Below are positions 16,541-58,996 of a stretch of 64,000 bases of DNA, piece after piece (position 1 is the stretch's first letter; each line of letters opens with the position of its first letter). The notes beneath the pieces were generated by a model. The model did no database searches. It had not been told where the DNA came from and saw only the letters and a program-made list of their open reading frames with translations. The translations under genes were made by a program, and so were the position numbers. The stretch comes from Macrocystis pyrifera. Taxonomy: Eukaryota; Sar; Phaeophyceae; Laminariales; Laminariaceae. Where the stretch lies: positions 5,476,336-5,540,335 of the forward strand of contig JASSKH010000019.1 of the NCBI GenBank assembly GCA_031763025.1, in the 5' to 3' direction.

Positions 16541-17122
16541 TCAACAAATACATGTGCTCAGCGGCGAGCGCCACGCTACCCTACCGCATAGAATAGCCTA
16601 CGCTCAAGCATGTTCACGGGTTATTATGTCACACAATCAGTGAGTCAGATGGCAATAAAATGAACAATACATTACCTAATACTTCTAGTAATTATTCAAG
16701 GTGTTTCTTCTCGGTGAGCCCACCCTATACACAGCAGGATACAGTTAGCGCAGTATTATATACCATCATTTTTTGCCTACCGGACACAAAGTGAATAGAC
16801 CCCCAGATTTACCTGTCAGGCGAGTTTTCAACGAGGTGTACAGGCTCGGCTCAGAGGATACTGTACTACCGTGGCACAGGACAGGACACCCACGGTACAG
16901 CAACAAGAAAAAAAACGAACAACAAGAAAGGCAGCCTGTTATTTACAGGGGAATACCGGGTAAACTAATAAATTAAGGAGTCGTCAATACTAATACTGAA
17001 GTTAATGTTAATATTAATACTGAAGTTATAGTTAATGTAGAGAACGAACGCATTCGCAAATTATAAGAGAAATTCACTCTGGAGCAGTAGGGCAGGTCTC
17101 CTGTTTCTGCTTGCAGTATTAA

Positions 17123-17237
17123 TATTACGGGGGACAATAGTAAATAGGACCAAATATTGTTAGTAAAAATAGGTGAATATATACCGGTAGGTTTTTGTGC
17201 TTGCCGTAGGTCCTGTTAACTATGGTCCCCCGTAATA
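17123..17237. mobile_element. MITE family A, copy 1
   Basis: A near-perfect inverted repeat with ends TATTACGGGGGACAATAG and CCCCCGTAATA. The AT-rich centre contains AAATATTGTTAGTAAAAATA. The usual length of the family here is about 109 bp; this copy has a small insertion (CCGGTA). Its left arm is of the GTAAATAGG type and its right arm of the GTTAACTATGG type. Confidence 0.9.
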
Positions 17238-17500: not shown

Positions 17501-17609
17501 TACTACGGGGGTCCACAGTTAATATGATCTATGGTATACATAAAAACCTATATATTTGCCTATTTTTACTAACAATATTTGGTCCTATTTACTATGGTCC
17601 CCCGTAATA
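17501..17609. mobile_element. MITE family A, copy 2
   Basis: About 109 bp with ends TACTACGGGGGTCCACAG and CTATGGTCCCCCGTAATA. The two arms belong to different subtypes (GGGGGTCC on the left, GGTCCCCC-matching on the right). Confidence 0.9.
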
Positions 17610-18521
17610 TACCGCTTCCCCTTGTCAGAAGTTCCTTTGGAAGGGGCTATGTACCTACTACTGCTGTACCGTATCATGCAGAGTAGTAGGCGCCCCGTAC
17701 TACTGCTGCTTGTTGCATGCCGAATCATGGGGGGATGGAAGCAGCAGTACCTGGTACGCGACAGCACCTTCTTCGTTGTTAATAATACTTCTTAGGCGCC
17801 AGTTTTAGACGAAAACAATCCTACGCTCGTGGGTGTTCTTGACATGAAACCATTGTTTTCTTTCTGCCCGTTGACATCCAGCATTACACAGCACACAGCA
17901 CACAGCAAACAGCAAAGAGCACACAGCTCACGGCACACAACAAAACAGTAGTTTCCGCGCCGGATATTCATCCTTTCTGTGGAGGTAAATCTCTCTGATA
18001 AAATGAACGCGCGACAGAGAGATACCAAATTGAGTTGTGCATTAAGGAGGGTAGATAATGCAACATGGGCCCATTTGTACCGTATCACACTGGGTGATAA
18101 TAACACACACCCTGGGACGAATTTCAGAACTGGTTTCCTCCAAAACATGCCTTAAGGGGGCACACACAACGAAAATGGTAACTTTGGAACTATTTCGTCG
18201 AGAAGGTTGTATAGACGCATCGCTCGGCGTGGACGCCCTCCCCGTTCTCCTGAAACCCAGCTCTGAAAATTGCCGAGGGGGTGCGGTGTCTCATCACCCA
18301 CAGTGTGATACGGTAAACAGGAGGTATCCCCTTGTAAGCTTTTAAGGGAGCCCTTATGAGGGACAACGGTACACCAGTGTAAGGCACCTCAAATGTCTCC
18401 TGACCATTTTTGCCCACACTACATCAGCAGTGCGCGCCTCGTGTTCAAGAAACTTCAATTTGGTGTCCAGGCTCAATGCCTTGTTTTTTCCAACCTTGAT
18501 CAATAATACTCGTAGTAACTC

Positions 18522-18631
18522 TATTACGGGGGAACACAGTAAATATGACCAAATATTGTTAGTAAGAAAAGGTAAATATATAAATTTTTGTGTGTACCGT
18601 AGGTCCTATTTACTATGTCCCCCCCGAAATA
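18522..18631. mobile_element. MITE family A, copy 3
   Basis: Ends TATTACGGGGGAACACAG and CTATGTCCCCCCCGAAATA surround the shared AT-rich core. The right terminus is mutated. Confidence 0.88.
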
Positions 18632-18749: not shown

Positions 18750-18859
18750 TATTACGAGGGGCCATAGTTAATAGGACCTATGGTATACATAAAAAACCTA
18801 TATGTTTCACTATTTTTACTAACAATATTTGGTCCTATTTACTGTGGTCCCCCGTAATA
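18750..18859. mobile_element. MITE family A, copy 4
   Basis: Ends TATTACGAGGGGCCATAG and CTGTGGTCCCCCGTAATA. It directly abuts family B copy 2 on its right side. Confidence 0.9.
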
Positions 18860-18997
18860 GTTTGTTCCCAAAACGGGACTACTGTCTGTGGTTTTTCTTC
18901 CGTGTTCGTGCCGAACTGAGCTTACTTTTCGTACCAAAATCTCTGTTACGATTAATAGTAGCCCTTTCAGGACCGCAGTCCCATTTTGGAGACAAAC
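18860..18997. mobile_element. MITE family B, copy 2, between two family A copies
   Basis: Inverted ends AGTTTGTTCCCAAAACGGGAC and GTCCCATTTTGGAGACAAACT, with an internal block CCCTTTCAGGACCGCAGTCC. The element fills exactly the gap between family A copies 4 and 5. Confidence 0.75.
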
Positions 18998-19106
18998 TAT
19001 TACGGGGGACCATAGTTAATAGGACCTACGGTGCAAACAAAAACCTATATATTCCCCTATTTTTACCAACAATATTTGGTCCTATTTACTTTGGTCCCCC
19101 GTAATA
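18998..19106. mobile_element. MITE family A, copy 5
   Basis: Ends TATTACGGGGGACCATAG and CTTTGGTCCCCCGTAATA surround the conserved core. Confidence 0.92.
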
Positions 19107-19169
19107 ATAGGGAAATATGTAGGTTTGTGCCTGTAACGTACGTCCCATTTACTATACCCCCCTCTAATA
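19104..19169. mobile_element. MITE family A, half copy
   Basis: Only the core and right arm are present (GGGAAATATGTAGG ... CCCCCCTCTAATA), fused to the end of the preceding copy. This looks like a duplication followed by deletion, or an insertion of one copy into another. Confidence 0.75.
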
Positions 19170-21390: not shown

Positions 21391-21499
21391 TATCACGACG
21401 GGCCATAGTAAATAGGACCTACCGTACAGACAAAAACCTATATATTTACCTATTTTTACCAAAAATATTGGGTCCTATTTACTATGGTCCCCCGTAATA
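21391..21499. mobile_element. MITE family A, copy 6
   Basis: Ends TATCACGACGGGCCATAG and CTATGGTCCCCCGTAATA. A family B-like inverted pair (AGCTGTCCCCCTG ... CAGTTTGGGGGACAAAG, about 21503-21612) follows directly. Confidence 0.9.
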
Positions 21500-21502
21500 G
21501 TA

Positions 21503-30775: not shown

Positions 30776-31538
30776 GTCAACAAGAATTTTGATATGAACA
30801 ATAATTTCGATTTGTGCAGTCGCTAATGAAATCAACAGATTACCGTAGGTAACATACGGTATTCGGCAAATCTCTGCAGATATTGTGAATGAGTACCGGT
30901 AGGCTGGAAAAGTAAGAAAGTCAACGTGTGATGCCGATACCGGTACCTTTATGATGACATGTATCGGTACGGTAACATGCAGTGTACCGTACCGGTAATA
31001 CCGGTAACCTTCTTGTTTGCGTTCCGTTCTTTTCCTCGTTCATTGTCGCTGTATTCCCCCTCGTTTTCACTTGTTTGTTTGTTTTCTCCTTTAAGTTATT
31101 CAATCGGTTGGTTTGAGGTGTGGGCAGGAGGGGGTGGGCACGCGGAGTCCTCCCACGACGCTCCCCTCCGCGTCCCCAATCGATGCGAGACACCGCGCCA
31201 CGCCTGCCACTGCCGGAATTCCTACGGATCTCGCCAATCTCGTGTGCGACACGACAACAGCGGCCAACAGCGGCATCCACTCCCTCACCGGCTTCATTTC
31301 CCCCCCAGGGCCATCGACCCTGACTCGTCTACGTCCTCTGACCAACGATGTCATCGGCATACGTCAACCAGCGTCCGTCGACCCCCGACCGCACAAAATT
31401 CTATCTCCGTTGGTCCCACGGGTTCTCACGGACTCGTAGCTGCCCGCCCCGAGCTGACCACACCACTGTCCCTGGGCCCAAGGGACAGTTTTCCCGCGGA
31501 CTCATCAGCGGAAGACTCGACCACACGTCACCAAGATT

Positions 31539-31829
31539 ATGCCAGGAGCCACCTGTACCGGCACCCACACCCCGGTCACGGACTACTACAGGTACCGCAT
31601 GTTCTCCCGAGCTTTCCCTCCTTCGCATACATTGAATGCCGGTAGGATGGACTCCCTGGGTGCTTCGTCACGAGCGTCACACCGCCACGTATATCCTCGC
31701 GGGGCCTTGACACGATCGACCTTCCCCCGCACGTTCTCGGGGACCGAAGCCGTCTTACCCACGCCTTCCCCGACAACCTCCGACACCACTTTCCCCTCCC
31801 CACTCCCCTCAACACTGAGCCTCTCCTAA
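31539..31829 (+). pseudogene. Element 1 N-terminal (gag-position) reading frame, broken
   Basis: A Ser/Thr/Pro-rich frame of about 96 codons ends in TAA immediately before the ATG that opens the NADAR region. Other frames from 31113 onward also look coding-like in composition, so the gag region is probably split by frameshifts. No zinc knuckle or other gag motif is visible. Confidence 0.35.
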
Positions 31830-32278
31830 ATGTTCTTTTGGGGATCATTCCTCGGTCTTCTCCCAGTGGTACCCTTCGACATTCACCTTCCATAACGAGC
31901 ACTACAACTGCGCGGAACAGTACATGATGTCGGAGAAGGCCAAGCTTTTCGCCGACACAGCAGCTCGCCGGTAGATCATGTCCTCTCCGAATCCCGCTCA
32001 ACCAAAACAAATAGGCCGCTCTGTCTCCAAGTTTAATCAAGCGCTTTGGGTACAGCATCGGTACGATATCGTCTTCAAAGGTAACCTCGCCAAATTCTCG
32101 GCTCTCTCCCTTGCTCCAACAACTCGTAGACACCGGCGACAAGCTCCTCGCCGAATCTAGCCCTCACGATCTCGTCTGGGGCATCGGCTTCAGGTCTGAT
32201 GATGTGCGAGCCTTACAACCTCCACACTGGCCGGGACTCCGCCTGTTAGGCGACATCCTCGTGAAGATCCGCCACTAG
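31830..32278 (+). pseudogene. NADAR (YbiA-like) domain in Ty3/gypsy element 1
   Basis: The translation shows the whole NADAR fold signature in order: FFWG, then SVFSQWYPSTFTF, HYNCAEQYMMSEKAKLF, a GRSVSKFNQALW segment, RYDIVFKGNLAKFS, then TGDKLLAESSPHDLVWGIGF and a closing WPGLRLLGDILVKIRH before TAG. NADAR proteins are N-glycosidases linked to ADP-ribose and riboflavin-pathway intermediates; bacterial members can remove ADP-ribose from DNA guanine. The Glu of the EQYMM motif and the WGIG motif, both hallmarks, are kept. One frameshift near 31840, a TAG at 31972-31974 and a frameshift near 32110 break the frame. It lies between the gag-position sequence and the protease, in the same strand and the same place as in element 2. 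The family call is firm; any role in the element is inference. Confidence 0.88.
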
Positions 32279-32280
32279 CT

Positions 32281-32307
32281 TCCCCCCCCCCCCCCCCCCC
32301 CCCCCCC
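32281..32307 (+). repeat. Poly-C tract after the NADAR stop
   Basis: About 26 C followed by CCTCC repeats, directly downstream of the NADAR stop codon. It could have expanded by slippage after the element died. Confidence 0.95.
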
Positions 32308-32574
32308 TCCTCCTCCGCCCCCCCTGGGCGCCTCTCGCGTCTCACCCTGCAAAAATGGGATTCACGAAATCAGTGCAACCGTTTCCGCTCCTACCGCACC
32401 CTCCACACTGGACCACCTACTGCCCCCCTTCCTCGCCGAAACAACTCCTCCGCATGCATTGGCTTCTGCCATTTCGTCCGGAGCTGTTCTTCCCCCTGCA
32501 CTTTCCTCCGTCATTGCCGAACATGGACCGGGCCTCTCGAGCGGTATCGCTGCCGTCGACGACGCCTCCTTCAC

Positions 32575-32910
32575 GACCAGGATCAAAGTACACGATGGAC
32601 CCTCCGTATCCAACCTCTATGGCCTAGTAGATCTCCTGGATACCTGCTCCCCCCAGACCTTCATCTCCGCCGAACCTTGGGCTCGCATGAAGCACAGCAA
32701 CGCCGCGTCGGAAGTCTGTGAACGACACGCTTGCCCTCGTTCTTTCGGTGGTTTCGGTAAATCCGCTCCCCTCCCAACTTCGATTTATGTACGACTCAGC
32801 ACCTAGTTCTTGCACGACAACAATCTCTCCGCCGAACTCGTCATATGGGCATGCATCGTGCCTCATGGGACTATGCAGCACCTCGTTCTGCTGGGACGCG
32901 ACAGCTAGAT
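32575..32910 (+). pseudogene. Element 1 aspartic protease region
   Basis: A frame reads LVDLLDTCSPQTFIS, resembling the retropepsin D-T/S-G-A active-site loop but with Cys in place of Gly. It continues into CERHACPRSFGGFGKSAPLP, and the frame then shifts near 32800. The same arrangement (LLDTDS, then CERHSPPRSRGGIGKCPPL) is seen in element 2, which supports the call. The family's usual glycine is lost in both. Confidence 0.65.
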
Positions 32911-33629
32911 GCAGTTCGAACATCGCACGTACACCACCCTGCTCCGCTTCCCCTTGTGACCGCCTTTTAGCGAGCTCTCGCTCACCACCCCTTACAAGGA
33001 TGGTTCCTCCACTTTCATCCACGGCAACCGCCTTTCTCCTGACACCCTACACCTCGAGTTCGCCGGCGTTCACGCAGTCTCACTTTCGTCTACGCCGCCG
33101 TCCCTCGTCCCGGTTACTTTGGTGCGTTCCTCCGGCATTCCGGCGCTCACTAGCCATTACCTCGTTGACATTCTCCCAGCGACGGTATTTCGTCCGAAAT
33201 CGAAATCTCCGTTGCCAACGGCTACCAAAATATTCCGCTCTCGGGATACACGGATCTTGAACCGGGCGACCTTCTGGGGACTTCCTCTTCTCCCCTCATA
33301 CAAATTCCGGTCTCAGCACTGCAAAGTCTCCCCACAGCATCACTTCCAGTCCCAGCTGTTACCGACGTCCACGCCCTGCACGACAACACCCCCGTACACG
33401 ACGACGGTACACCCGCACCTGATCCCCCCAAGAGCCCTTGCCCCAAACTCCTGGAATGCCTGACTGCCGACCAACGGACAAGCTTCCTCCGACTCTGAGA
33501 CCGGCTTATGCTACACCCTCGCGACGTCTCCTTCGAGCTCCGCGATTCTGGTTGGACCCCTTCGGTCATCACAGCCCTGGGCGAAGTTCTTTGCGAATTC
33601 CCCGATGTTTTCTCCACGTCCAAAACCGA

Positions 33630-34555
33630 CTTTGGCTCGTGCTCCCTTATTCCGTTCAAGATTTCAATTCCCCCGCATAGCGCCCCAGTCTGTTCCCGCC
33701 CTTACCGCATTAACCCTATCCTCGCCAAGCAGACCGATGCTGTCGTCGACCAAAACCTGGCTGCCGGCCTAATCCAGCACTCCACGTCTCCATACGCCAG
33801 CCCTATGGTCACCATTCCAACGAAAGACGGCAACGTTCGGATAACCGTAAACTACAAAACTTTTCGCCTTCAACTCCCAGAGCCAACGGCCCATCCCCCG
33901 TATCCACGAGGTGCTCAACTCCCTCGGAAAAGGCTGCATCTTCTTAACGTTCGATCTCGTGCCTTCGTTCCACCAAATCACCATCGACAAGGACACTGTA
34001 CCCTTGGCTGCCTTCTGCACGCCCGCTCGACTCTTCGAGTGGCTCGCCATGCCTCAAGGCAGCAGCGCCGCGCCTGGCTGGTTCGTCAAGGTCATCAACG
34101 AGGTCGTCATAGACCTTGACCGCGTAGCGGCCTACCTCGACGACGTCATAGTTTTTGACCCCGACCCCGCGGCCCACGTCGCCAATATCCACTCCCTTTT
34201 CAAACGACTTCGAAAACACAACCTTAAACTCTCCCCTTCCAAAACCAAGCTTGTCGCTACCAGCGCCGAATTTTTGGGACACACCATTTCCTCCTCCGGC
34301 GTTAGCCCAAACGCCGACAAGGTTGCCGCCCTACCCCAGATGCTCATGCCTACGAACACCAAGCAAGTGCGCTCACTTGTCGGAGGGATTGGATACTACC
34401 GTAAGTTCCTAAAGAATCTCTCCACTCGGCTCCGACCCATTAACGCCCTGCTCAAACAAGGCGTTAAGTTCATTTCCACCTCGGAAATGGAAAACATCGT
34501 CCGCCAGATCCTCCACGAACTCGCTACCCCTCCGGTCTTGGTACACCCGGACTGA
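33630..34555 (+). pseudogene. Element 1 reverse transcriptase
   Basis: The frame starts with YRINPILAKQTDAVVDQNLA and SPYASPMVTIPTKDG. It then shifts near 33910 into a second frame containing FLTFDLVPSFHQI, AMPQGSSAAPGWF and the catalytic AAYLDDVIVF. It goes on through SKTKLVATSAEFLGH and VRSLVGGIGYYRKFL before TGA at 34553. These are the Ty3/gypsy RT blocks with all catalytic Asp residues present. One frameshift and the terminal stop separate it from RNase H. Confidence 0.9.
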
Positions 34556-34556
34556 G

Positions 34557-34960
34557 ATGCCGTCGCCGACAACTCCCGCCCTTTTCGCCTCTACTGCGAC
34601 GCTAGCATCGACGGGTTTGGCACGACTCTCGAACAAGAACAACCCGACGGTTCCGTCCGCCCCGTCGTCTTTATTAGCCGCACCACTCTCGACAACGAGC
34701 GATCCTGGACCCCCCTCGACCTCGAAGCCGGTAGCATCGTTTGAGCCATAAAACGCCCTCGCGGTCACCTCTGCTTCACCAAGTTCTACATCTACTCTGA
34801 CCACAAGGCGCTCGAGAGTATCACTACGGTCGGCGAACGCAACGTTCGCGTCCAACGCTGGCTGTAGCGCCTCTCTGCCTACTCCTACACCGTGGATAAC
34901 CGGAAAGGCTCCGCTAGTGGCAATGCCGACTTTCTTTCTCGACTCTCACAAGCAGCCACC
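34557..34960 (+). pseudogene. Element 1 RNase H
   Basis: Directly after the RT stop the same frame reads FRLYCDASIDGFGTTLEQEQ, PVVFISRTTL and a YSDHKALE block. The last part is interrupted by TGA (in place of the Trp of a VWA motif) and TAG, followed by GNADFLSRL. This is the gypsy RNase H with its first catalytic Asp and the SDH block. Confidence 0.85.
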
Positions 34961-35289: not shown

Positions 35290-35556
35290 CAAGACACCGC
35301 CGCTGGATCGTCTCGTAGCCTTCCCGCCGGTCCCCCTTTGCCCAGGATACCGCCGCTGGATCGTCTCGCAGCCTTCTCGCCGGCCCCCCCTTTGCTCAAG
35401 ATACCGCCGCTTCATCGTCTCACAGCCTTCCCGCCGGCCGCCGCTTTGCTCCAGGTACCGCCGCTGGATCGTCTCGCAGCCTTCCCGCCGGCCCCCGCTT
35501 TGCTCCAGATACCGCCGCTGGATTGTTTCGCAGCATTCCCTCCGGCCCCCGTTTAG
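35290..35556 (+). repeat. 54-bp tandem repeat in the RNase H-integrase spacer
   Basis: Five units spaced 53-54 bp (anchors near 35303, 35356, 35410, 35464 and 35518) encode an 18-residue motif, IPPLDRLAAFPPAPALLQ, in one open frame. It lies in a Pro-rich spacer of about 1.4 kb between RNase H and integrase. Confidence 0.9.
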
Positions 35557-36419
35557 CTCAAGATCTCGCCATCCAACCGCCCCGCATCTGTTTTGCCGAC
35601 TCACGCAATGTTCAAGACCCCACCACCGGCCCACTTCTGTGCTCGATCCCGTCGCCGAATCTCCTCCCAGCTCCGAGAAAGCCGACGTGGCTGCTGACGC
35701 TCCTGTTGGTGTGTAATCCAGGTCACCCCTCGTATCTCCATCTTGCCTACCTTGGGCGTCTCACTTTCGGCCACTCCTCGTTAATCGTCGGGCCTAATTT
35801 ATTCTCGGACCCGTCGCCGCTCCGCCACTGCCGCTGAAACTCCCCGTACTCCTTCGGACTATGGATGTGATCTTCAAAGTTCAGCTACGGCAGCCTCAAG
35901 ACCGTCACCAACTTACCGCCGTCCGCCTGCCGTTACGCCCAGGCCACTTCTCCGGCGACCGGATGCAGCTCGCCGCAGCGCCGCTCAAGACTCGCCCTCG
36001 TCAGCGACCCCAGCCAGCGCTACTCCACCAGTGTCCCTGCCTCCACCGCAGTCCACCACCGGGGCGTTCTACCCCGCCCTCCCCTACTCAATCACCCCAA
36101 CTGCCTGAACCCGTCGTCCGGCCTGATGACGACCCACACCTTAGCTCCTGCGTTGAGCGTTACACCTACACCGACTGGCGCGCGAATAATGCACCGAACC
36201 TCTTGGCTCAGCTACCCGACGATATATTTCCATGGGCTCACCTTCACCATCACCGGGCGACCTCTTGGACTACATCTCTTCGACCCGTCGCCCTCTTCTC
36301 TCGGAGGTCCTCGCCCTCGCCGCGAAAGTTCAGCGCCATACAACCGACGAAGACACAGTCCTCCTCGTTCACCGATCACACATGGCTTCCCTGGGCCAAG
36401 CCCGCACGACTACACCTCA

Positions 36420-37273
36420 GCCCCTCACATCACCGCCTCGCATTTACGCCCCAATGTTGATGCGACCGTGGGTCCTACATACATGCCACTCCACCACCTC
36501 TTGCCTCTTGGGTGTTGCTCGAACACTCAGCATGCTTATGCACTTCTACTGGTGGATTGGCATGGACGTTGCCACCCGCTGGTGGCTCTGCTGTTGCCTC
36601 AAGTGCCAGGCGCGTAAGTCTTCGCGCCAAACAACTCATTGGCCCACCCTCTCCCTGCCGCTACGAAGTAACCCCGGTATTCTCATCAGCGTCGGTTATC
36701 TCGTGCCCTTACCCATCACGCCTCGGGGAAACGCTTACATCCTCCTTTTCACCGGCCGTTTCAGCCACGGCGCCGACATGTACGCCACGGGTTCGCCGCA
36801 TCCGGCACGGCTGACATCCTCGTCGATCGTTACATCCCTCTCTGGGAATACCCCGTTACTCTCCATTCCGACTGTGGTCGATAATTCTGCGCCAAACTCT
36901 CTCACGCCCTCTATGAGCGCCTCAGCACTCGACATCAACAATATCTTCACGAGTTCCTACCACCCCTGCAGCAACGGCGACGCCGAACGCGTCAAACCTC
37001 ACCACGGCCTTGATGCTCGCCGTAGTTGGAAACGAACTACCAAATGATTGGGATTTGCATCCCCCCCACGTCGAAAGCGCCTGCAACAACTCCGTCAGCG
37101 CCGCCACCGGCCTGGCCCCCAACGAACTACACATGGGCCGACTGCCTCGCCTCCCCCTCACTGTGCTCAACTCTCCTTGCATTGGCAGACATCAAAGCCT
37201 CAACCGGGACCAGCTCGGATACAACGAACTCGCCGCTGCTCACCAGCAACGCGCCTACCGCGCCGTCCGGTAA
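36420..37273 (+). pseudogene. Element 1 integrase (zinc-binding and catalytic core)
   Basis: The frame contains a His-His-Cys-Cys pattern (HTCHSTTSC..., then WWLCCCLKCQARK) and then the core beginning VPLPITPRGNAYILLFTGRF. A second frame carries the SDCGRQFCAKL block, and a third SACNNSVSAATGLAPNELHM. The first catalytic Asp appears as Gly. At least two frameshifts lie in the core. Confidence 0.8.
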
Positions 37274-37321: not shown

Positions 37322-37753
37322 ATGGGTGCCCTCCGCCTTTCCCCCCCTTTCTCTGTCGAAGGTTTGGCATGGATTTACAACACCACTGCCACTATTCGCC
37401 AACGCGCCAACAAAGGCACCGACGCCACCGTTCTCAGGACCAAGCTCTCCTTCAACTGGATCGGCCCGTTCAAGATCCTTGCCATGGGCCCAGCACCGGC
37501 TTCAGCCGTTCCGGATGAATGGCCCATTCACGACAAGCTCCTGCATTTCGACCTTCCCTCGGACATGCCGGGACGTGACTCCAAACATTGCGTCTCCGTT
37601 CTCCGTTGCAAGCCCTGCCAGAACACCGAAGACATCGACGATCTCCCCAAACACCTACGGGCCGACCTGACCAAGTACGTTCTCAGCCAAGTCCCCGCCC
37701 TTCCACGTCACCTTCGACGACATCTCTCCACCACCCGAACGCCTCGAGGTTGA
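37322..37753 (+). pseudogene. Element 1 integrase C-terminal domain
   Basis: An open frame of about 140 codons contains GLAWIYNTTATIRQRAN, LSFNWIGPFKILAMGP and HCVSVLRCKPC. This matches the GPF-containing C-terminal domain of gypsy integrases (W.GPF.I). It leads towards the chromodomain after a frame change. Confidence 0.75.
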
Positions 37754-37905
37754 CCAGATCTCGGAACACCAACTCGTTCGTGGCCCGGGAGTGATGTACG
37801 AAACACACTGGGCCGGAATCCTTGGCCCTTCTTGGGAACACGAGCGAGACCTACAGCTCCACCGACTCCACATCCTCCGCTATTGGTTGGGCACCCCTTC
37901 ACATC
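37751..37905 (+). pseudogene. Element 1 chromodomain
   Basis: One frame reads VDQISEHQLVRGPG, then MYETHWAGILGPSWEHERDL and HILRYW. The aromatic positions and the SWE block match a chromodomain. In chromoviruses this domain directs integration towards chromatin carrying particular histone marks. The target preference of this copy cannot be read from sequence. Confidence 0.75.
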
Positions 37906-38281
37906 ACCGCCAGACCAACCGATCATACCGCCAGATGCGCATCGAGGCCGCTCACCGCGAACTATCATGGTCCCGGGGTGAAATCGTCCTCGCTCCCGGG
38001 TACAGCCTTGTCCCACTCACCCTCTGGCTTCACCGCTTCAGCTCTTCACCTCTCCCCGCCGGGGCACACCTCTGGTACAAGGCCCGCGATGGTCTCTGGT
38101 GGTTGGGCAAAGCTGCCCCCCGCGCCTCGACCGACGCCTCCTCCGCTGACTCCTACATCGTCCGCTTCCTCCACGACCAGGGCCCGATCAAGATTACACT
38201 CCTACCGTCCCTCTACACCACTTCACGGAGCGCGACCCAAGGATCCTGGTGCCTCCAGCGTCATCAGGCCGGAATACTAGC
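37906..38281 (+). pseudogene. Element 1 C-terminal module after the chromodomain
   Basis: The same frame as the chromodomain stays open for another 120 codons to TAG at about 38280. It contains a compact aromatic stretch, HLWYKARDGLWWLGK, followed by SYIVRFLHDQGPIKI. The spacing of aromatics resembles an SH3- or Tudor-like barrel, but this is only an impression. Ty3/gypsy proteins often end soon after the chromodomain, so the extra module is unusual. Confidence 0.5.
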
Positions 38282-38740
38282 ACGCAGTGTACAACGCAAT
38301 GTCAATGTACCCCCCCACCACTCGTCCGTTCGACCAGTTAACAGTAGCTGATGGTCGGCGGGTGCGTTAGATTGTCGTATCCTAGTTTTGCGACCCGTAT
38401 ATTCTGTGCGTCCGTTGTCTTTGACACGCGTTCACTTTGGGTGTTGATTCCACCTAGCACCTAATGTTTCGTTTTTTTCGCTAGGACGCAATTCTCAACA
38501 AAATGTGTTGTTGTACCTCCTATTGCCTTTTCTTCGGGGCGGTCTTTCGGTCTTTCGTTATTTTTTTCCTTTCTTGCATGCTCTCTGTCCTTTCTTTTAT
38601 GTTATTTTTCTTCGTGTTTCGGACTACAAACGAGTAGGGACTTTATTGCGTCCTTCCCGCCCTAGCTTCATATAGACGTTTGTATTGGGACACACTACAC
38701 CAAGTCCCTTGCCGACCTTCTCATTGGCTTCCTTGTTTGC

Positions 38741-38863: not shown

Positions 38864-39139
38864 TGTTGATTGTGCTCAGAAACACGACGGAGACGTTACA
38901 TCCAATATTAGGGAGTTCCATATATTGATATGGGATTATAGGAGAGGGATATTTAGACGGATATTCGGGGGGATAAACGAGAGGTTATTCCCGCGTCCTG
39001 TTGGATATAACCTGCATACGATGCGTGAGCTGTCACTCGACAGCTCGGATATAATATAAGAGGAGTTCCGTGTTACTGTCTGGAGTCAACCACGCGTTCC
39101 CGTGCCAGCTGCGCCTATACCTTTAGAGATAAATCAACA
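38864..39139 (+). repeat. Copia 5' LTR
   Basis: Starts TGTTGATT and ends AATCAACA, an exact inverted pair. It contains a stretch GAGCTGTCACTCGACAGCTC that is itself an inverted repeat, just upstream of an ATATAATATAA box, which could be the promoter. It holds about 32 bases near its 3' end (CGCGTTCCCGTGCCAGCTGC region) that are absent from the 3' LTR. Confidence 0.95.
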
Positions 39140-39197
39140 TACTAGTGAAGTCCGGTGATTTTCTATTGGCAAGCGTAGCCAAGGCCAACCTAGAGAG

Positions 39198-40266
39198 GTG
39201 GGAACCTGCTTCGGCATCCCTAGTTTCGAGGATGTGCTCAGTCAAGAAGCCAGCGTAGAGAGTGAAAAGATTATAGAAGAGATGAGGAAGAAAATAGAGG
39301 TCCTGGAAAGGACGATGGAGGAGCAGAGACTGCGCGCCGAGAGGGACGCGCAGGGAGCAGGAACGGAAGAGGGGCCGGTGGAGGGACGAGAGGAGAAGGA
39401 ACTGCTAGAAGACAACAAGCAGCGTCGCCTGTGCCGACACCTGGGCTGGAGGCCCAATCAGGCATGTCATTACCTTCTTTGTACCGCCCGAGTTTGTCGA
39501 GACCCCCGAAGTTCGATAACGTAGAGGCCCACTTTAGCATGTGGCGTAGCAAGTTTTTGGCATACCTATCATCGCTTGGGTGCTTGCATGTACTCAGTAG
39601 CACAGCAAACCCAGTTATGGTGGGTGACATGAGGGTTTCGCCGGAGGAATTAGCCTCCAGACATTCCCCCCAGGAGATTAGGGACGCGCGATTGGTGTAG
39701 GGATTGATGATGGAGGCCATGACAGGATACGATATGGCAGAGTTTAGGATGCAGAAGGCACTGCCTCCGAGTGCTTGGAAGGGGTTGGAGGACTATTACA
39801 TGCCTAAGACGATAGCAGCAACACATAGATTAAGGAGGGAGTTTGATACCATCCGAATGGCTGAGGACGAGAACCCCTTGCTGTTCCTAGGAAGGGTGGA
39901 CAAGGCAGCAGATGAGCTGGCGATGTTGGGATGTGGTAAGAGTGCAGAGGAAGTGAACCGTCACATAGTTACCAACTTCTCATCTTTGTATACTATTCAA
40001 AGCAAGTCAATTCGTTCACGCCCTTCCATCCCCCGTTCCGAGATCGATGAGAGCATCCGTGGCGCGTATGCAAACGACAAGGTAGAGAAGGAGATGGTTC
40101 TAGGGCATTGGGCGTGCAGGGAGTGGTAGATCAGCATGCCTTCTACGCCGGAGGTGCGCAGCCTGCCGGTGGCGGAGGTGCGGGTCCAAGAGCGGAAAGG
40201 AGGAACAGGAGAGGCGGGAAGTTCAAGGATGGGCAGCAGCAGCAGCAGCAGCTCCAGCGACAGTAT

Positions 40267-40298
<32 letters not shown>

Positions 40299-40426
40299 TC
40301 AGCAGCGGCAGCCCCAGCAGCAGCAGCAGCATCAACGGCAGCAGCAGCAGCCCCAGCAACAGCAGCAGCAGCACCGTCCCCATCAGCAACGTGGCGACCG
40401 GGGAGGAGCTTCGTCGGGGGGGATAA
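39198..40426 (+). pseudogene. Copia gag region (UBN2-like), broken
   Basis: The first frame encodes a charged coiled-coil (EKIIEEMRKKIEVLERTMEE) with no clear ATG. A shift near 39430-39520 leads to a frame with KFDNVEAHFSMWRSKFLAYL. After TAG at 39698-39700 it continues with PSAWKGLEDYYMPKTIAAT, HRLRREFDTIRM and FLGRVDKAADELAMLGCGK, a recognisable copia-type gag core. The tail holds a CAG-rich tract (about 40233-40370) read as poly-Gln in one frame and poly-Ser in another. No CCHC zinc knuckle is seen. Confidence 0.8.
40233..40370 (+). repeat. CAG-rich tract in copia gag
   Basis: Interrupted CAG repeats. The frame that follows the upstream GGAGPRAERRNRRGGKF segment reads them as poly-Gln. 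Confidence 0.95.
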
Positions 40427-40447
40427 CCGGCCCCAGATGGCGTTTGG

Positions 40448-42238
40448 ATGCCTTGGCCTGCAGGTACCGTTGGGATGACTCAGGCTCAGACCCCCTGCGG
40501 TACGGGTGGAGTAGTCCCCCCCATGGGTTGGGTACCTACCGACCCACTACCAGAGACGTTGCCGCCGATGCCCCCGCCGCCCGTAGCGACTCCGGCAGGC
40601 TGGGGTCCCCCACCGAACAACACGACATGGAGGCGCAAGGGGCCACCACGCCGCGGAAAGCCAGGTAGCTCCCGCGCAAATGAACGTCGTTATCCCGGGT
40701 GCCGCTTCTCCTCAACCCGCCCAACAACCATACTACGGAGGTGGCTGGCTGGCTGCGGGAGACGCCCTACGGCAGTGGTAATGTATACCTCGGCCGGAGC
40801 TTCCCCGCCACAACAACCCTCCTTCAGCACTTCCTCCTCCCCTGGCCCAGCGAACAAGTGCAACCCTACGCCTACGTTCGATCCGCACCTCCTCACCGCG
40901 CAGTTTGCGCACCAAGGCAAGGCGACTGATGATTTGTTTTGGGTTAATGGGAGAGAAGAGTGGGTAGCAGATTCGGGAGCAACCTTTCATGTGACTGGTA
41001 ACCCTTTTGGTATGGTAGACTGTACTCCGCCTTCCCCCAGTAAGAGCAAGAGCCGTTTGGTGGTCGGTGACATGAGGTCACTGAAGATAGAGTACTTCGG
41101 CCAGATTCCAATTGTGATGCACAGCTCTCAGGGTGGCGTTCAAGTTAGGCTGACGGACGTAGCATACGTACCCGGTGTTCGCTTCAACCTTTTTTCGCTG
41201 CATGCAGTAATGTTGAAATGCCCGGTGACACTTGATGCTCAGGGAGCTCACACGTTGAAGGGGCAGCTGTCCTTCGTGCGTAGGGACGCGGGTTCATACG
41301 TTGACGCCACGCGGATTGTAGAGACCCCGATTGCTGCCGCTGTTTTGGTTCCTGGAAAAATATGGAGAATTGATATTAACGACCTTCACGTTTCCCTTGC
41401 CCACTCCCATGCTGACACTCTCCGTGAGACGGCACGCCAGATGGGCATTAAGGTTTTTGGGGAGTTGGTTCCGTGTGCTGGGTGGTCTGAGGCGAAAGGG
41501 AGGAGGATGGCGGTACCGTGGACGACCGAGTGCCGTTCTACCAGGCCTCTGGAGCGTCTGTTCGTGGATCTGTCGGGACAACAGCCTACGTCTGTTGGCG
41601 GTGCGCAGTACTTGATGATGATCGTCGACGACTACTCGCGACTGGGGTGGCCGTATTTCTTGAAGCGGAAGTCCGACGTCCCGAAGGTCTTCGGTGGTTT
41701 CCTGGCCGACATCAACGCAAAGGGTGTGCCGTCCATCGTGGAGTGCCTTCGCTCGGACAACGGCACCGAGTTCACCAAGGCGGAGTTCGTGGAGTTGCTC
41801 AACCACCACGGCATCCGCCGCGAGTACACGTCCGTCGATTCTGCGAAGCATGACTGGATGGTCGAGCGACGGATCGCCATGACGCTGGAGCTTGCAATGA
41901 CGTCCCGCCTGGAGGCCACCCGCCTGTTCGGCGATGCAAGGATGCCGGCGACGCAGCCCCTCTGGGCTGAGTCATGCGTGTACGCGAGCGATGTGATCAA
42001 CATGACGGCGAGGGTAAGGGACAAGCCGGAAATGCACTCGCCGTACCGCAAATTCTACGGGAGACCGCCGTTTGCGCGGCTGCTCCCGTTTCTGAAGCCG
42101 GGCTTCCACCACGTCAGGAGGGCCCTCACTTGGGAACACCCGAGGAAACCGTTTGTGGGGTTACTGCCTTCGGAGGAGGAGAGCTCCCGCCGCCGCCGTC
42201 GCCATCGCCACCGCTGCCGGGTGCGCCGGAGCCTCTGA
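40448..42238 (+). CDS. Copia pol, protease and integrase
   Basis: One open frame of 596 codons. After a Pro-rich lead, the protease loop WVADSGATFHVTG is intact near residue 178, followed by VVGDMRSLKIEYFG and VAYVPGVRFNLFSL. A weak GAG-pre-integrase zinc region follows. The integrase core then shows LFVDLSGQQP, MIVDDYSRLGWPYFLKR, CLRSDNGTEFTKAEF and MVERRIAMTLELAM, giving the three catalytic acidic residues. Where most copia integrases read P-Q-Q-N-G before the last Glu, this one reads SAKHDW. The frame ends in an Arg-rich tail soon after the KPFVGLLP block. It needs the gag frame upstream for expression. Confidence 0.9.
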   Translation: MPWPAGTVGMTQAQTPCGTGGVVPPMGWVPTDPLPETLPPMPPPPVATPAGWGPPPNNTTWRRKGPPRRGKPGSSRANERRYPGCRFSSTRPTTILRRWLAGCGRRPTAVVMYTSAGASPPQQPSFSTSSSPGPANKCNPTPTFDPHLLTAQFAHQGKATDDLFWVNGREEWVADSGATFHVTGNPFGMVDCTPPSPSKSKSRLVVGDMRSLKIEYFGQIPIVMHSSQGGVQVRLTDVAYVPGVRFNLFSLHAVMLKCPVTLDAQGAHTLKGQLSFVRRDAGSYVDATRIVETPIAAAVLVPGKIWRIDINDLHVSLAHSHADTLRETARQMGIKVFGELVPCAGWSEAKGRRMAVPWTTECRSTRPLERLFVDLSGQQPTSVGGAQYLMMIVDDYSRLGWPYFLKRKSDVPKVFGGFLADINAKGVPSIVECLRSDNGTEFTKAEFVELLNHHGIRREYTSVDSAKHDWMVERRIAMTLELAMTSRLEATRLFGDARMPATQPLWAESCVYASDVINMTARVRDKPEMHSPYRKFYGRPPFARLLPFLKPGFHHVRRALTWEHPRKPFVGLLPSEEESSRRRRRHRHRCRVRRSL

Positions 42239-42535
42239 GGGGCCCCGACGTATGGCCCGATCCACCGTCCCCATCTCCACTGCTGCCGCCGCAACCGCCG
42301 TCATCACCGCCGCTACCGCCGACGCCGCCACCGCCGTCACCGTCGCCGTCCGCCGTCATCGTCACCGCCGCCGCTACAGCCACCGTCACCGCCGCCGCCG
42401 TCGCCACCACCGCCGCCGCCGTTATCATCGCCGCCGTTATCATCGCCGTCGCCGCCGCAGCAGTCACCGCAGCCACAGTTTTCGCAGCGTCCTGCCCGGG
42501 TACTGGGTTCTTATATCCCGGACCCGGAGGATAGC
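42190..42535 (+). repeat. CCG-rich low-complexity linker in copia pol
   Basis: Imperfect CCGCCG repeats between integrase and RT, read as Pro-rich in one frame and as Ala/Val/Thr runs in others. This is low-complexity sequence, not a separate gene. Confidence 0.85.
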
Positions 42536-42538
42536 AAT

Positions 42539-42988
42539 GTGCTGAGGGGGCGGACAAGGGGGGAGACTGCACGACACCAGGAGAGCGATGGCGCTGTGCA
42601 GAGATGTCGGGCTAGGGGGGAGACCGCACGACACCAGGAGGGTGGTGGCGGTGTGCAGGGTGATCGGGCCAGGGGGGAAGCTGGGCGATACCTGGAAGGT
42701 GGAGATGTGCTGAGGGGGCGGACAAGAGGGGAGACTGCGCGGAACCGCGAGGCTATGGGGCATGGGCTGCTGTCGTTGATGGCAGCGCGGGAAGGTATAG
42801 GCCATGTACTATTCCACCAAGCTCCACCGCGCGAGAGCCCTCCCCTTCCTACACGCCCGGCGAGCGAGCTTTCGACGCCGAACTCGTATGCTGAAGCGTG
42901 TGCGGACGAGTATTCGGCCATCTGGAGACAGGCGATGGACAAGGAGTACCATGGGCTGGCGGACGCGGGGACGTTTGGAGCGACGTAG
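42539..42988 (+). pseudogene. Copia pol, linker repeats and start of reverse transcriptase
   Basis: The first part encodes about four units of a 16-20 residue repeat (GRTRGETARHQE, RARGETARHQE, RARGEAGRYLE). Then the copia RT start appears: SYAEACADEYSAIWRQAMDK and EYHGLADAGTFGA. A TAG at 42986-42988 interrupts it; the same frame then reads GLNVISAKWVFAWKSNE and KARLVARGFKQR until a shift near 43110. Confidence 0.8.
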
Positions 42989-43109
42989 CGACCAGAGGGG
43001 CTCAACGTCATCTCGGCGAAGTGGGTGTTCGCCTGGAAGTCCAACGAGCAAAGTGACGTGGTGCGGGCGAAAGCAAGGTTGGTGGCACGAGGTTTCAAAC
43101 AGCGTGTGA

Positions 43110-44291
43110 GGGTATTGATTCTTTGAGACTTTTGCTCCGACGCCTGCAGCGTCTTGTTTCCGTTTGTTGGGTGCTATTGCGTGCGAGTTGGGTTTGGATC
43201 TGTGTCATTTTGATGCTGAGCAGGCGTTTGTGCAGTCGAGTTTGGATGAGGATGTATTCATGCGACTACCCCCTGGCTGCGGCGAAATGTCTGGTAGGGT
43301 AGCCAGATTGAATTGCAGTCTCTACGGCTTGAAGCAAGCGTCGAGGTCGTGGCACAACCACCTTCTCACTCATATGCAGAGTCTAGGATTTGAGCAGGGC
43401 CCCGCTGGCGCGAGTGTCATGAGGTTGTTCGAATCGGGCTCTGTCTCCATTGTAACGGTAGTTCATGTGGATGATATTTTTGCTGTAGAGCTCAAGGCTA
43501 GATGCGATCAGTTCTGTGAAGATCTGAACAACCTTGTGCCGATCAACAATCTGGGCGAGTTGCGGTGGTATGCTGGTTGTTGTTTCTCGAGGGATTGGGA
43601 TGCTGGTACTTTAACGATTTCGCAGCAGGCGTTCGCTGAAAATACCGCGGCGAGGTTTGGTGTTAGTTCTGGGAGGAATATCCCGCTTTCGACTGGTGTG
43701 AAGCTCGAGGAGTTTGACGAGGATGAACCCGTGGGTGATTCGCCTTTCCGCGAGTTAGTGGGGTGCTTGATATGGCTTGCGAACCAAACACGACCGGATA
43801 TTGCGAACGCGGTGAGGGTGATAGCGAGGTACACGAATAGGCCGAGGGAAGTACACTGGAGGACAGCAGTCGGTATTTTAGAGTATGTATTTTCTACGAG
43901 TGATTTCGGCGTTACGTTCCAGAAGGGTAGCGGGCTTGAGCTGGTAGCGTTTGCAGATGCAGACTATGCCAAGAAAGCCACTGACAGGAGGTCAGTTTCC
44001 GGCAGGGCTATCATATGTGCTGGGGCGTGTGTGTGCTGGTTTTCTAGGACGCAGAAATGCGTCACACTCTCAACCACTGAGGCCGAATATGTAGCACTGG
44101 CAGACACTATCAAGGAGGCAATGTTCATGCGCTATGTATGGTGTTGTATTTTTCCGGGGTTTGGGGAGAGATGCATTACGGTTTTCGAGGATAACGAGGG
44201 GGCAAGGAAACTGGCACAAAATCCAGTGTTTCACGTCGAATTCGAAGCACATCGACGCACGACACCACTTTTTGCGCGAGCTTTTTTTTAA
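43110..44291 (+). CDS. Copia reverse transcriptase and RNase H
   Basis: A 375-codon open frame from 43164, extendable upstream to the 43110 shift, encodes GLDLCHFDAEQAFVQSSLDE and CSLYGLKQASRSWHNHL. The catalytic motif is VHVDDIF, the His form of copia's YVDD. RPDIANAVRVIARYTN follows, then RNase H with VAFADADYAKKATDRRSVSG and TLSTTEAEYVAL. These are the diagnostic copia blocks with catalytic Asp and Glu residues present. A shift near 44240 moves the last part (KHIDARHHFLRELFFKGE, HADFLTKPL) into another frame, and a TAG at 44329-44331 separates the final block. Confidence 0.93.
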
Positions 44292-44404
44292 GGGAGAGTT
44301 TGTTATTACCCATGTAGAGTGGGAGAAATAGCATGCAGACTTCTTGACAAAGCCGCTCAATAACACGATGCTTCGTTACCACCGGGATTTTCTGATGAAT
44401 GTTT

Positions 44405-45059
44405 GACGCGGTTTTTCCGAGATAGAAGGTTTTATGTTATTTTAGAGTGAAGGATTTGTCTGAACTACGTATAAATCCGAAGATGCTGCCGTTTTTCCTT
44501 GGCTAATTCCGAGGATGATACCACTTTGTTCCTGGTGATGTATTTCGAGAGTTTTTAGTGTTTTCGAGTAGTCCCAACGTCAAATATAATTCAAGTGAAG
44601 GAATGTATGCTAACTCGCATTACCGTCGCGATCTGTGTATCTATGGCGGGAGTAGGGGACAAGGGGAGACTCTTATCCGGTGAAACGGGGTTCCTTGCGA
44701 TCTCTGGCATTTATTTTCTTGGCCTAATTTTTATTTTCATGAGTATGACTACTGTGATATTTTATATAATTTGCATTAATTCCTCATGAAATAGAGGGAG
44801 AGGTTTTGGATGAGGTTGAAGAGAGACTATGAAGCGCCTGGGGGCGTATGCGGTCCATAGTAAATGTTTTCTGAGTTGGAGGGTTTGGATAGTATTTTGG
44901 AAATTGAGAGTTTGATTTTTGGTTCTGGGTGAAATTATGTTTCTGAATTTTTATGAGTTGGTCATAATGTTGAGATGTTTCCACCCAGCGGAATCGTACA
45001 TTGTAGTGTACAGAGCTTGGGGGATATTAAAGTATGGTCGTGTACAATGAGCAGGGGGA
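44405..45059 (+). other. Copia 3' untranslated region
   Basis: AT-rich sequence between the pol end and the polypurine tract. Short frames here have no recognisable domain. Confidence 0.7.
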
Positions 45060-45304
45060 CATTGATTTCGCTCAGAAACACGACGGAGACGTTACATCTA
45101 ATATTAGGGAGTTCCATCTATTGATATGGGATTATAGGAGAGGGATATTTAGACGGATATTCGGGGGGATAAACGGGAGGGGTATTCCCGCGCCCTGTTG
45201 GATAATAACCTGCATACGATGCATGAGCTGTCACTCGACAGCTCGGATATAATATAAGACGAGTTCCGTGTTACTGTCTGGAGTCAACTAGAGATCAATC
45301 AACA
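45060..45304 (+). repeat. Copia 3' LTR
   Basis: It matches the 5' LTR but starts CATTGATT instead of TGTTGATT, so the canonical TG terminus is lost at its inner edge. It lacks about 32 bases found near the end of the 5' LTR. The outer end AATCAACA is kept and is followed by the target copy TGTAC. Confidence 0.95.
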
Positions 45305-47430: not shown

Positions 47431-47725
47431 AGGTTAGGGACGAGTCGACTGCTCACCTCAAAAACCCTGCTGAGGAGGGTAAGCAAGAGGCACTCCCGTA
47501 CTATCCCACATTTGGCGAGAAGCCGGCATCTGGCCTTGAGGGAGTCGACGTGCGTAAGTCCAGGGCTACGGTATATGTCTTATACATGCCGTACCCAATA
47601 AGGCGTGCCTTATCCTATTTGTGCTGCTCATTACTTTTCGATAGCACCTAATCTAATGCTATCGTTCGTCGGGTTAAACCTTCATACCGAAGTATTTTCT
47701 GAAACGTCAGTTTAGGTAAACTTAC

Positions 47726-47833
47726 TATTACGTGGGACCGTAGTAAATAGGACCAAATATTGTTAGCAAAAATAGGGAAATATATAGGTTTTGTGTGTTC
47801 CGTAGGTTCTATTTACTATGGTCTCCCGAAATA
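47726..47833. mobile_element. MITE family A, copy 7
   Basis: Ends TATTACGTGGGACCGTAG and CTATGGTCTCCCGAAATA surround the conserved core. Confidence 0.9.
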
Positions 47834-48442: not shown

Positions 48443-48576
48443 GTCTCCAGCCTCTCCCCCCCCCCGCCCCCCTACGCACCCCCCAACCCTATTCCATTCC
48501 CAAACCCACCCCCGTCTCCCCCCCGCATTTTTCCTACCTGGTTATTGAGTGCCTCTCATGATCTACTTGGAATTAT

Positions 48577-55499: not shown

Positions 55500-56010
55500 C
55501 GGGGTCAAACTGCTGCAGTCACTGCGGTCGAGCTCCGTCGAAGGCAAAGGCAGTCGGGAGAGGAGTTGGTGTTCCCGTTGACACTGCCTTTGCGATATTC
55601 CAGAGTGTAGCTGTACGATGTCAAGAATTCTACCCACCTTTGTACTCCCGGGTTGTGTTCTGTAATATTGCCGAATATTTCGAACGTCTTTTGGTCCGAC
55701 AGCATTCGAAAATTGGTAGGTAAACGCAAGGCCGTAAGATGCCCCAGACAAGGCTGCTCGCTTCTGGATTGAGCGGGGACAGTTGAGGTGCAGACTCGAT
55801 GGTAGCGCGGGCGATGAGCACGATGGGGCCAATCGTGTGGTGGTCTTGCTCTTGCTCGAGAGTGGCACCCAAACCGTCCACACTGTCATCGCAGTACAGG
55901 AGGAAAGGGCCGGAGTTGCCGGTGACGGGGTCCCAGTGGGGGCAGACGAAGATCGGAGGCGTGGACAGTACGCACGATTGTCGTGTAGGTTCGTCCGGTG
56001 CAGGTTGCAC
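55500..56010 (-). pseudogene. Element 2 RNase H
   Basis: A frame reads FLLYCDDSVDGLGATLEQEQ, IVLIARATIESAPQLSPLNP and VWGILRPCVYLPIF. A shift then leads to FGNITEHNPGVQRWVEFL and YTLEYRKGSVNGNTN. This matches the gypsy RNase H of element 1 block by block. Confidence 0.85.
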
Positions 56011-58429: not shown

Positions 58430-58870
58430 TATATTTTGTCGCACGGTTTGTCTTGTCCAGAAAATTAAAAGCGCGCCAGATGGGGGCCTGGCGTACAAAG
58501 AGGTCGTCAGCCTGAATCCGACACCCCATGTGAGATTGTGAGGACTAGCGTCGGCGAGAAGCCTGTTGCTCGTGTTCAAGAGATGGAATCGCGTGGCATT
58601 AGTTTGGGCGAACTTGGCGTAAGCGCTGACAAGGGTGATACTTTTACGATCGCGTTCTCTCGCAGCAGTACGGAAGCTACGGTCCTATCGTCCGTGTGTT
58701 GTCGGCGTGGGTCGGACACGCGTATGATGTTGTAGAGTCTGATGGTCCCTGAAGCGGCGACTCGTTTCCGCAGCGAAAGACTGTTCGCCTCAGGATGAAG
58801 CGATGCTTTCAACCGTGAAACGGAAAGGCGAAAGGCAAGAGGGGAGATGCTAGAAGCACACCATGTCGCG
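58430..58870 (-). pseudogene. NADAR (YbiA-like) domain in Ty3/gypsy element 2
   Basis: One minus-strand frame reads LPSCLSPFRFTVES, then GEQSFAAETSRRFRDH, AYAKFAQTNATRFHLLNTS and LLADASPHNLTWGVGF. A one-base shift then gives ADDLFVRQAPIWRAFNFLDK. This follows the NADAR pattern from the N-terminal LSxFxPxxF-like segment through EQ, KF and WGxG to the C-terminal helix. Two in-frame stops interrupt it. It lies upstream of the protease, as in element 1, with very different surrounding sequence, so the domain was part of the ancestral element. NADAR enzymes cleave N-glycosidic bonds in ADP-ribose-related substrates; the role here is unknown. Confidence 0.85.
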
Positions 58871-58996
58871 CAAGCAGTATGCTTGGGTGACGTCGAACGC
58901 GGTTGTATCCATCGTCGCATGAGCAAAGGCAAGAGGAGTGCCATACACATACCCAGAAAATATGTTGGGGACCTCGCTCTCTCTGGGAGACTGATC

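What the first reader, a model, noticed from the sequence alone, without database searches (positions are those of the whole stretch)
31830..32278. NADAR domain inside a Ty3/gypsy retrotransposon (element 1)
A full NADAR signature (CAEQYMMSEKAKLF, KFS, then SPHDLVWGIGF and the LLG...R end) lies between the N-terminal region and the protease of a chromodomain gypsy element. NADAR proteins are known as N-glycosidases of ADP-ribose-linked substrates, and bacterial members reverse DNA ADP-ribosylation as antitoxins. A retroelement carrying one could be countering host ADP-ribosylation of its nucleic acid or proteins; that role is inference. I do not know of a description of this arrangement but could not search.
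Basis: partly seen in the sequence, partly recalled or inferred. Interest (0 to 1): 0.88.

Follow-up and report, generated by a model that had tools for sequence, protein, structure and literature searches.

The report
Decayed retrotransposons carrying a NADAR enzyme
Two worn-out LTR-type retrotransposon copies, probably from a brown alga, each carry a NADAR domain, an enzyme module that elsewhere strips ADP-ribose from nucleic acids; such elements were described in the brown alga Ectocarpus in 2025, and what the enzyme does for them is still untested.

Summary
A complete NADAR domain (PF08719) lies at 31837-32281 (+), upstream of the protease region and reverse transcriptase of a decayed Ty3/Gypsy element, broken by one stop and one frameshift. 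A second, more decayed Gypsy element on the minus strand has a NADAR at the same place (58903-58502). Element 1 keeps 9 of 11 side chains that contact ADP-ribose in a crystallised NADAR, including the key E43, K50 and E125; element 2 keeps 4 of 11. Six database proteins join this NADAR to sequence matching the element's flanks. Element 1 and related copies form one clade (100/100); the donor is unresolved, and element 2 could not be placed. [quoted passage not shown] So this is a new member of a known kind. No chromodomain, LTR pair or intact copy was confirmed here. Likeliest role (inferred, about 35%): an N-glycosidase acting on ADP-ribosylated element RNA or cDNA. I found no demonstration of function in the papers examined.

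The parts
31454..31825 (+). Element 1: region upstream of NADAR (gag or N-terminal Pol side); no Pfam domain
   Evidence: Matches the upstream flanks of database proteins P0028, P0016 and P0017, which continue into NADAR; no Pfam hit in window 30932-31642
31837..32103 (+). Element 1 NADAR, N-terminal part, one internal stop; residues equivalent to E43, K50, K75, R79, W89, R93 kept, Y84 is F and D86 is Q
   Evidence: PF08719 in two pieces, 124 bits, 8bau_A E 4.4e-9, residues
32108..32281 (+). Element 1 NADAR, C-terminal part in the next frame; residues equivalent to E125, D130, W133 kept
   Evidence: PF08719 E 7.9e-12, 64 bits, residues
32282..32324 (+). C-rich run (proline-rich linker after NADAR)
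   Evidence: Tandem Repeats Finder, period 1; P0019 has a proline-rich stretch at the same place
32510..32908 (+). Element 1 protease region, by motif only (LLDTCSPQTF ... LLGRD)
   Evidence: Read; collinear with element 2; no Pfam hit
33499..34552 (+). Element 1 reverse transcriptase, in two overlapping frames
   Evidence: RVT_1 2.8e-25 in 33851-34552 and Ty3-G 7.4e-32; 33499-34116 gave no RT hit and is assigned by its match to element 2
34556..34741 (+). Element 1 RNase H
   Evidence: RT_RNaseH_2 2.1e-13
35290..35564 (+). 54-bp tandem repeat, 5.1 copies, between RNase H and integrase
36457..36624 (+). Element 1 integrase zinc-binding domain
   Evidence: Integrase_H2C2 9.5e-9
37671..38348 (+). 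Element 1 C-terminal open frame; chromodomain-like and Tudor-like only by eye, not confirmed
   Evidence: Read; no supporting hit
58502..58903 (-). Element 2 NADAR in one frame with stops; 4 of 11 contact residues kept
   Evidence: PF08719 3.2e-11, 58 bits, residues
57906..58197 (-). Element 2 region matching the element 1 protease region
   Evidence: 38% over 45 and 48% over 48 aa
56338..57106 (-). Element 2 reverse transcriptase, decayed
   Evidence: 55% to element 1 over 151 aa and 34% over 191; RVT_1 8.8e-6 for one piece, below the Pfam cut-off
55747..55932 (-). Element 2 RNase H
   Evidence: 50% to element 1 over 62 aa
53843..54193 (-). Element 2 integrase region
   Evidence: 36% over 121 and 50% over 42 aa to element 1

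Best explanation
These are two decayed members of a Ty3/Gypsy lineage that carries a YbiA-type NADAR domain upstream of the protease (about 95% sure; shown by sequence). Element 1 and its sequenced relatives go back to one capture of the domain, after which it was inherited with the element (supported for that set; for element 2 inferred from its position). In intact relatives the domain most likely works as an N-glycosidase that enters the particle as part of Gag-Pol, is released by the protease, and removes ADP-ribose or a related ribosyl adduct from guanines of the element's RNA or cDNA, protecting reverse transcription from host modification (inferred; about 35%). Read with the standard code, neither copy in this window can make an intact NADAR.
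For: NADAR at the same place in two elements whose RTs are 55% identical over 151 aa. Six of nine testable database flanks match the element's non-NADAR flanks. Element 1 and 12 related proteins form one clade, 100/100. Element 1 keeps 9 of 11 ADP-ribose-contacting side chains: E43, K50, K75, R79, W89, R93, E125, D130, W133 (residues from PMC11543638 section 12; alignment to 8bau_A). In 24 related copies these 11 columns have a mean majority share of 0.88 against 0.77 over 145 columns; 79 of 10,000 random column sets were as high. NADARs including an oomycete one remove ADP-ribose from guanine (PMC11543638, PMC11125620; passages). Positive-strand RNA viruses carry NADAR in polyproteins with the polymerase (PMC9503650, passages).
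Against: No call and none of the five papers whose passages I read shows activity, expression or ADP-ribosylation of retroelement nucleic acid. Known NADARs also act on riboflavin intermediates (PMC11543638). Element 2 keeps 4 of 11 contacts; E125 is kept in 19 of 23 related copies; the K75, Y84 and D86 columns are no more conserved than average (0.75 each). The relatives were collected by shared 5-residue words, which pushes conservation up, and shared descent adds to it. No dN/dS was possible. Element 2's NADAR has a long branch (2.38) outside the retroelement clade and matches the algal host NADARs (best 3.3e-18) better than the retroelement ones (best 3.3e-10).
Confidence: 0.4

Rival explanations
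1. The NADAR is used to process, bind or tether the RNA intermediate, not to undo host ADP-ribosylation. This is close to the published suggestion.
For: PMC12477816 suggests processing of RNA intermediates (section 5, part 1 of 2). Nematode SNA-3, with three NADAR domains, is needed for SL1 trans-splicing and contacts the CBC-ARS2 complex (PMC9303266, passages).
Against: Mutating putative catalytic residues in SNA-3 impairs it, so that case is not clearly non-catalytic (the authors allow for misfolding). Element 1 keeps the key pocket residues.
Confidence: 0.25
2. The NADAR hydrolyses small molecules (soluble ADP-ribose signals or reactive riboflavin intermediates) in the host cell.
For: PMC9503650 argues that phage NADARs mainly target low-molecular-weight derivatives (passages). 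Bacterial and plant NADARs act on riboflavin intermediates (PMC11543638, passages).
Against: Fusion upstream of the protease would put the domain in the particle (inference). PMC9503650 argues that NADARs of eukaryotic RNA viruses mainly target macromolecules.
Confidence: 0.15
3. The NADAR is no longer selected and is passive cargo.
For: Both window copies are broken, and many related ORFs are truncated.
Against: RT and other parts of the same copies decay as well. Contact columns are somewhat more conserved than the rest, and the Ectocarpus paper calls the domain highly conserved.
Confidence: 0.12
4. A host or bacterial NADAR gene lies in a Gypsy element by chance and is not part of it.
For: Bacterial relatives are 36-51% identical to element 1's N-terminal piece (22 loci), and brown algae have stand-alone NADAR proteins.
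Against: Same position in element 2; matching flanks in six database proteins; retroelement-type and algal stand-alone NADARs are separate clades, 100/100 each.
Confidence: 0.02

Closest known systems
NADAR-bearing Gypsy lineage of Ectocarpus sp. 7, e.g. Gypsy-12_Ec32 (PMC12477816)
   Same: [quoted passage not shown] NADAR relatives outside algae mostly bacterial
   Different: The window copies are decayed, with no LTR pair found and no chromodomain confirmed.
Phytophthora nicotianae NADAR (PMC11543638; PDB 8bau by inference)
   Same: Sequence match E 4.4e-9 to element 1; 9 of 11 contact side chains shared with element 1
   Different: Free-standing protein; element 1 has F and Q at Y84 and D86
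Brown algal stand-alone NADAR proteins (P0024, P0026, P0044, P0046)
   Same: NADAR; 49-57% identical to element 1's N-terminal part and among the best matches of element 2's NADAR
   Different: Cys/His-rich N-terminus, own clade, no match to the element's flanks below E 0.5
Bacterial and phage YbiA proteins
   Same: Up to 51% (bacterial) and 53% (phage) identical to element 1's N-terminal piece
   Different: Stand-alone genes
NADAR-like ORF1 of oyster Tx1 LINEs (PMC12477816)
   Same: NADAR carried by a retrotransposon
   Different: Non-LTR element, ORF1, divergent; not examined here

Membership tests
NADAR superfamily, YbiA type | Profile match over the whole domain | tested here: met
   Three pieces cover profile 9-159 of 163; two places in the window, no hit in 20 shuffles
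NADAR superfamily, YbiA type | ADP-ribose contact residues, including the YbiA-type glutamate E125 | tested here: met
   Element 1: 9 of 11 including E43, K50, E125. Element 2: 4 of 11, with D at E125 and T at K50
NADAR superfamily, YbiA type | Hydrolase activity | not testable with these tools
   Needs protein of an intact copy
Ty3/Gypsy | Order protease, RT, RNase H, integrase | tested here: met
   RVT_1, RNase H and H2C2 in this order, Ty3-G in the PDB; protease and integrase core by motif only
Ty3/Gypsy | Flanking LTRs | tested here: inconclusive
   No pair longer than 27 bp in the regions compared; the copies are decayed and the regions were limited
[quoted passage not shown]
   Both window elements
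NADAR-bearing Ectocarpus Gypsy lineage | RT placement with the published families | not tested
   Published sequences are in supplements that were not available
Chromodomain Gypsy elements | Chromodomain after integrase | tested here: inconclusive
   No Pfam hit; PDB search gave only plastocyanin at E 0.5; resemblance by eye in a decayed copy
DarT1-associated NADAR antitoxins | Aspartate in place of E125 | tested here: not met
   Glutamate in element 1 and in 19 of 23 related copies; element 2 has aspartate but is heavily decayed. A neighbouring DarT was not searched for.

The most novel reading that the evidence does not exclude
The NADAR of this lineage is a retroelement counter-defence enzyme: it removes ADP-ribose that a brown algal transferase places on guanines of element RNA or single-stranded cDNA, which would imply an undiscovered nucleic-acid ADP-ribosylation defence against transposons in a eukaryote.
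Probability: 0.2. Interest if true: 0.85.

Novelty: new member of a known kind. Interest (0 to 1): 0.4.

Why it matters
NADAR domains undo ADP-ribosylation of guanine in toxin-antitoxin systems, and their role in eukaryotes is open (PMC11125620, passages). A retrotransposon lineage that keeps the key pocket residues is a testable case: if the enzyme is needed for transposition, the algal cell probably modifies retroelement nucleic acid or signals with ADP-ribose derivatives. The arrangement is already in print. Added here: a second element with the domain, retention of pocket residues, matching flanks in six other proteins, and the result that the brown algal host gene is as open a donor as bacteria or phages.

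Tried and rejected
Chance insertion of a gene beside the element: set aside. Polyprotein-sized relatives in the 5.8-billion protein set: 65 candidates, none at E 0.01, so no intact NADAR-bearing Pol was seen. RT relatives in viral contigs: 5 stretches matched a pattern, none confirmed. NADAR relatives in viral contigs: one and three loci, whose context was not examined. LTR pairs: none in the regions compared. Rfam (gathering threshold) and tRNA scans: nothing. Donor: holding retroelement and algal host NADARs together is not rejected (p-AU 0.278), and neither is joining the retroelement clade to an arbitrary pair of unnamed proteins (p-AU 0.335), so the test has little power. The residue table had shifted columns and was discarded. 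In one search I first tested eight chosen columns (mean 0.93, 5 of 10,000 random sets as high); one search adds the three left out and gives the weaker 79 of 10,000, which I use. Fold prediction and the search of the window's own genome did not complete.

Rows dropped: the 120-row tree left out seven of 25 retroelement-type proteins (P0010, P0012, P0014, P0015, P0028, P0056, P0062); one search used 12 of the 25, 37 of 95 other proteins, and left out element 2 because of its long branch. The label retroelement-type for the 25 is mine, by sequence; flank evidence exists for six, and P0017 and P0028 are near-identical where they overlap, so perhaps five loci. Of nine flanks, P0010 and P0012 matched only NADAR DNA in another frame, and P0056 matched nothing.

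Full report
Observation. The window is 64 kb, without tRNA or Rfam hits, and has many internal repeats. Its organism is not given and was not identified; a brown alga is inferred from the relatives below. At 31.8-32.3 kb the quoted NADAR motifs are present. PF08719 is hit by three separate pieces, E 2.6e-9, 3.2e-8 and 7.9e-12, covering profile positions 9-57, 61-103 and 107-159 of 163. A NADAR profile from 20 relatives, run over overlapping six-frame segments, marks two places, 31837-32281 (+) and 58903-58502 (-), and has no hit in 20 dinucleotide shuffles. In element 1 the domain is broken by one stop and one frameshift.

Surroundings. Downstream on the same strand come a C-rich run, a protease region by motif, RVT_1 2.8e-25, RNase H 2.1e-13 and the integrase zinc finger 9.5e-9. 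The RT piece matches Ty3-G Gag-Pol in the PDB at 7.4e-32. Protease, integrase core and the proposed chromodomain gave no family hit, so the chromodomain of this copy is unconfirmed. No LTR pair was found in the regions compared. A Ty1/Copia element with a 95% identical LTR pair (38866-39090 and 45062-45288) lies just 3'.

Second element. The minus-strand Gypsy element at about 53.8-58.9 kb is collinear with element 1: NADAR C-terminal part 46% over 35 aa, protease side 48% over 48, RT 55% over 151, RNase H 50% over 62. Its NADAR reads in one frame with stops and reaches E 3.2e-11. Similar divergence of NADAR and Pol fits joint inheritance, but the alignments are few and short. Against a simple picture, element 2's NADAR matches the algal stand-alone NADARs (3.3e-18 for P0052) better than the retroelement ones (3.3e-10 for P0025), and in the 120-row tree it sits on a branch of 2.38 outside the retroelement clade. 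That it shares the capture with element 1 is inferred from position.

Relatives. With element 1's N-terminal piece, 15 of 16 candidates pass E 0.001; the top three are 60-85% identical over 52-79% of the query. A profile search gave 2502 proteins at E 1e-6 among 8000 scored, 120 listed. The listed ones include named proteins of Ectocarpus fasciculatus, Ectocarpus sp., Pylaiella littoralis and Scytosiphon promiscuus, which have a Cys/His-rich N-terminus and look like host genes. Bacterial loci reach 51% (22 loci) and phages 53% (540 records). One close relative, P0013, is named Paracoccaceae MAG; that it is misbinned algal DNA is my inference. Of nine flanks of 25-30 residues or more outside the domain in 25 retroelement-type proteins, six match the window's non-NADAR flanks: upstream in P0016, P0017 and P0028, downstream in P0019, P0020 and P0034. 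No intact copy was seen.

Origin. In the 55-row tree element 1 and 12 retroelement-type NADARs form one clade (100/100) and five algal stand-alone NADARs another (100/100), the latter among mostly unnamed proteins; the bootstrap had not settled. Holding the two groups together is not rejected (p-AU 0.278), nor is joining the retroelement clade to an arbitrary pair of unnamed proteins (p-AU 0.335). One capture is likely for this set, and the donor is open. The published suggestion of transfer from bacteria is neither confirmed nor refuted.

Active site. PMC11543638 (passages and section 12) gives the side chains E43, K50, K75, R79, Y84, D86, W89, R93, E125, D130 and W133 around ADP-ribose in the Phytophthora nicotianae NADAR. 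That PDB 8bau_A is this protein, with numbering shifted by two, is my inference from the alignments. Element 1 keeps nine of these eleven (Y84 is F, D86 is Q); element 2 keeps four (E43, R79, R93, W133). In 24 related copies: E43 5 of 5, K50 22 of 22, K75 18 of 24, R79 22 of 24, W89 21 of 24, R93 22 of 24, E125 19 of 23, D130 21 of 22, W133 20 of 21. The eleven columns average 0.88 majority share against 0.77 over 145 columns, with 79 of 10,000 random sets as high, or 145 of 10,000 if only columns with 12 or more rows count. The search method favours conserved words and descent is shared, so this is suggestive only.

Known or new. Searches for NADAR with retrotransposon (104 papers, 20 listed), NADAR domain (15 papers), NADAR with Gypsy and LTR (1), DUF1768 with retrotransposon (0) and YbiA with transposable element (2), in a library of openly licensed papers only, gave one relevant paper, PMC12477816. 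[quoted passage not shown] They suggest processing of RNA intermediates. The present finding is a new member of a known kind.

Mechanism. Shown: the domain's identity and place, its recurrence with the same flanks, and residue retention in element 1. From the literature, as seen in passages: NADARs hydrolyse guanine-ADP-ribose (PMC11543638, PMC11125620), positive-strand RNA viruses carry NADAR in polyproteins (PMC9503650), and a nematode NADAR protein works in RNA metabolism with putative catalytic residues needed (PMC9303266). Inferred: packaging, release by the protease, and the substrate. I put 35% on nucleic-acid de-ADP-ribosylation, 25% on RNA handling, 15% on small molecules, 12% on passive cargo, and the rest on something else.

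Noticed in passing
window 38866-45288: Ty1/Copia element (rve, RVT_2) with LTRs 95% identical, just 3' of Gypsy element 1.
   Followed up: partly
window 17120-17237, 17501-17609, 18521-18622, 18750-18860, 18998-19109, 21391-21502, 47723-47831, 48574-48685, 50683-50794, 61325-61437, 61502-61613, 63416-63525: Twelve copies of a repeat of about 110 bp in both orientations, about 73-90% alike; MITE- or SINE-like.
   Followed up: no
window 35290-35564: 54-bp tandem repeat in an open frame between RNase H and integrase of element 1.
   Followed up: no
proteins P0024, P0026, P0044, P0046, P0052: Stand-alone NADAR proteins, four from named brown algae with a conserved Cys/His-rich N-terminus (possible zinc finger; P0052 lacks it), forming their own clade.
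   Followed up: partly
window 58930-58421 (-): Element 2's NADAR resembles the algal stand-alone NADARs more than the retroelement ones, also just upstream of the domain (AFDVTQAY against GFDGTREY), a possible hint of host origin.
   Followed up: partly
window 37671-38348: C-terminal frame of element 1 resembles, by eye, a chromodomain followed by a Tudor-like stretch; no database support. The Ectocarpus paper reports Tudor in a different Gypsy lineage.
   Followed up: partly
protein P0013: Database protein named Paracoccaceae MAG NADAR is 79-82% identical to element 1 and may be algal retroelement DNA in a bacterial bin.
   Followed up: no
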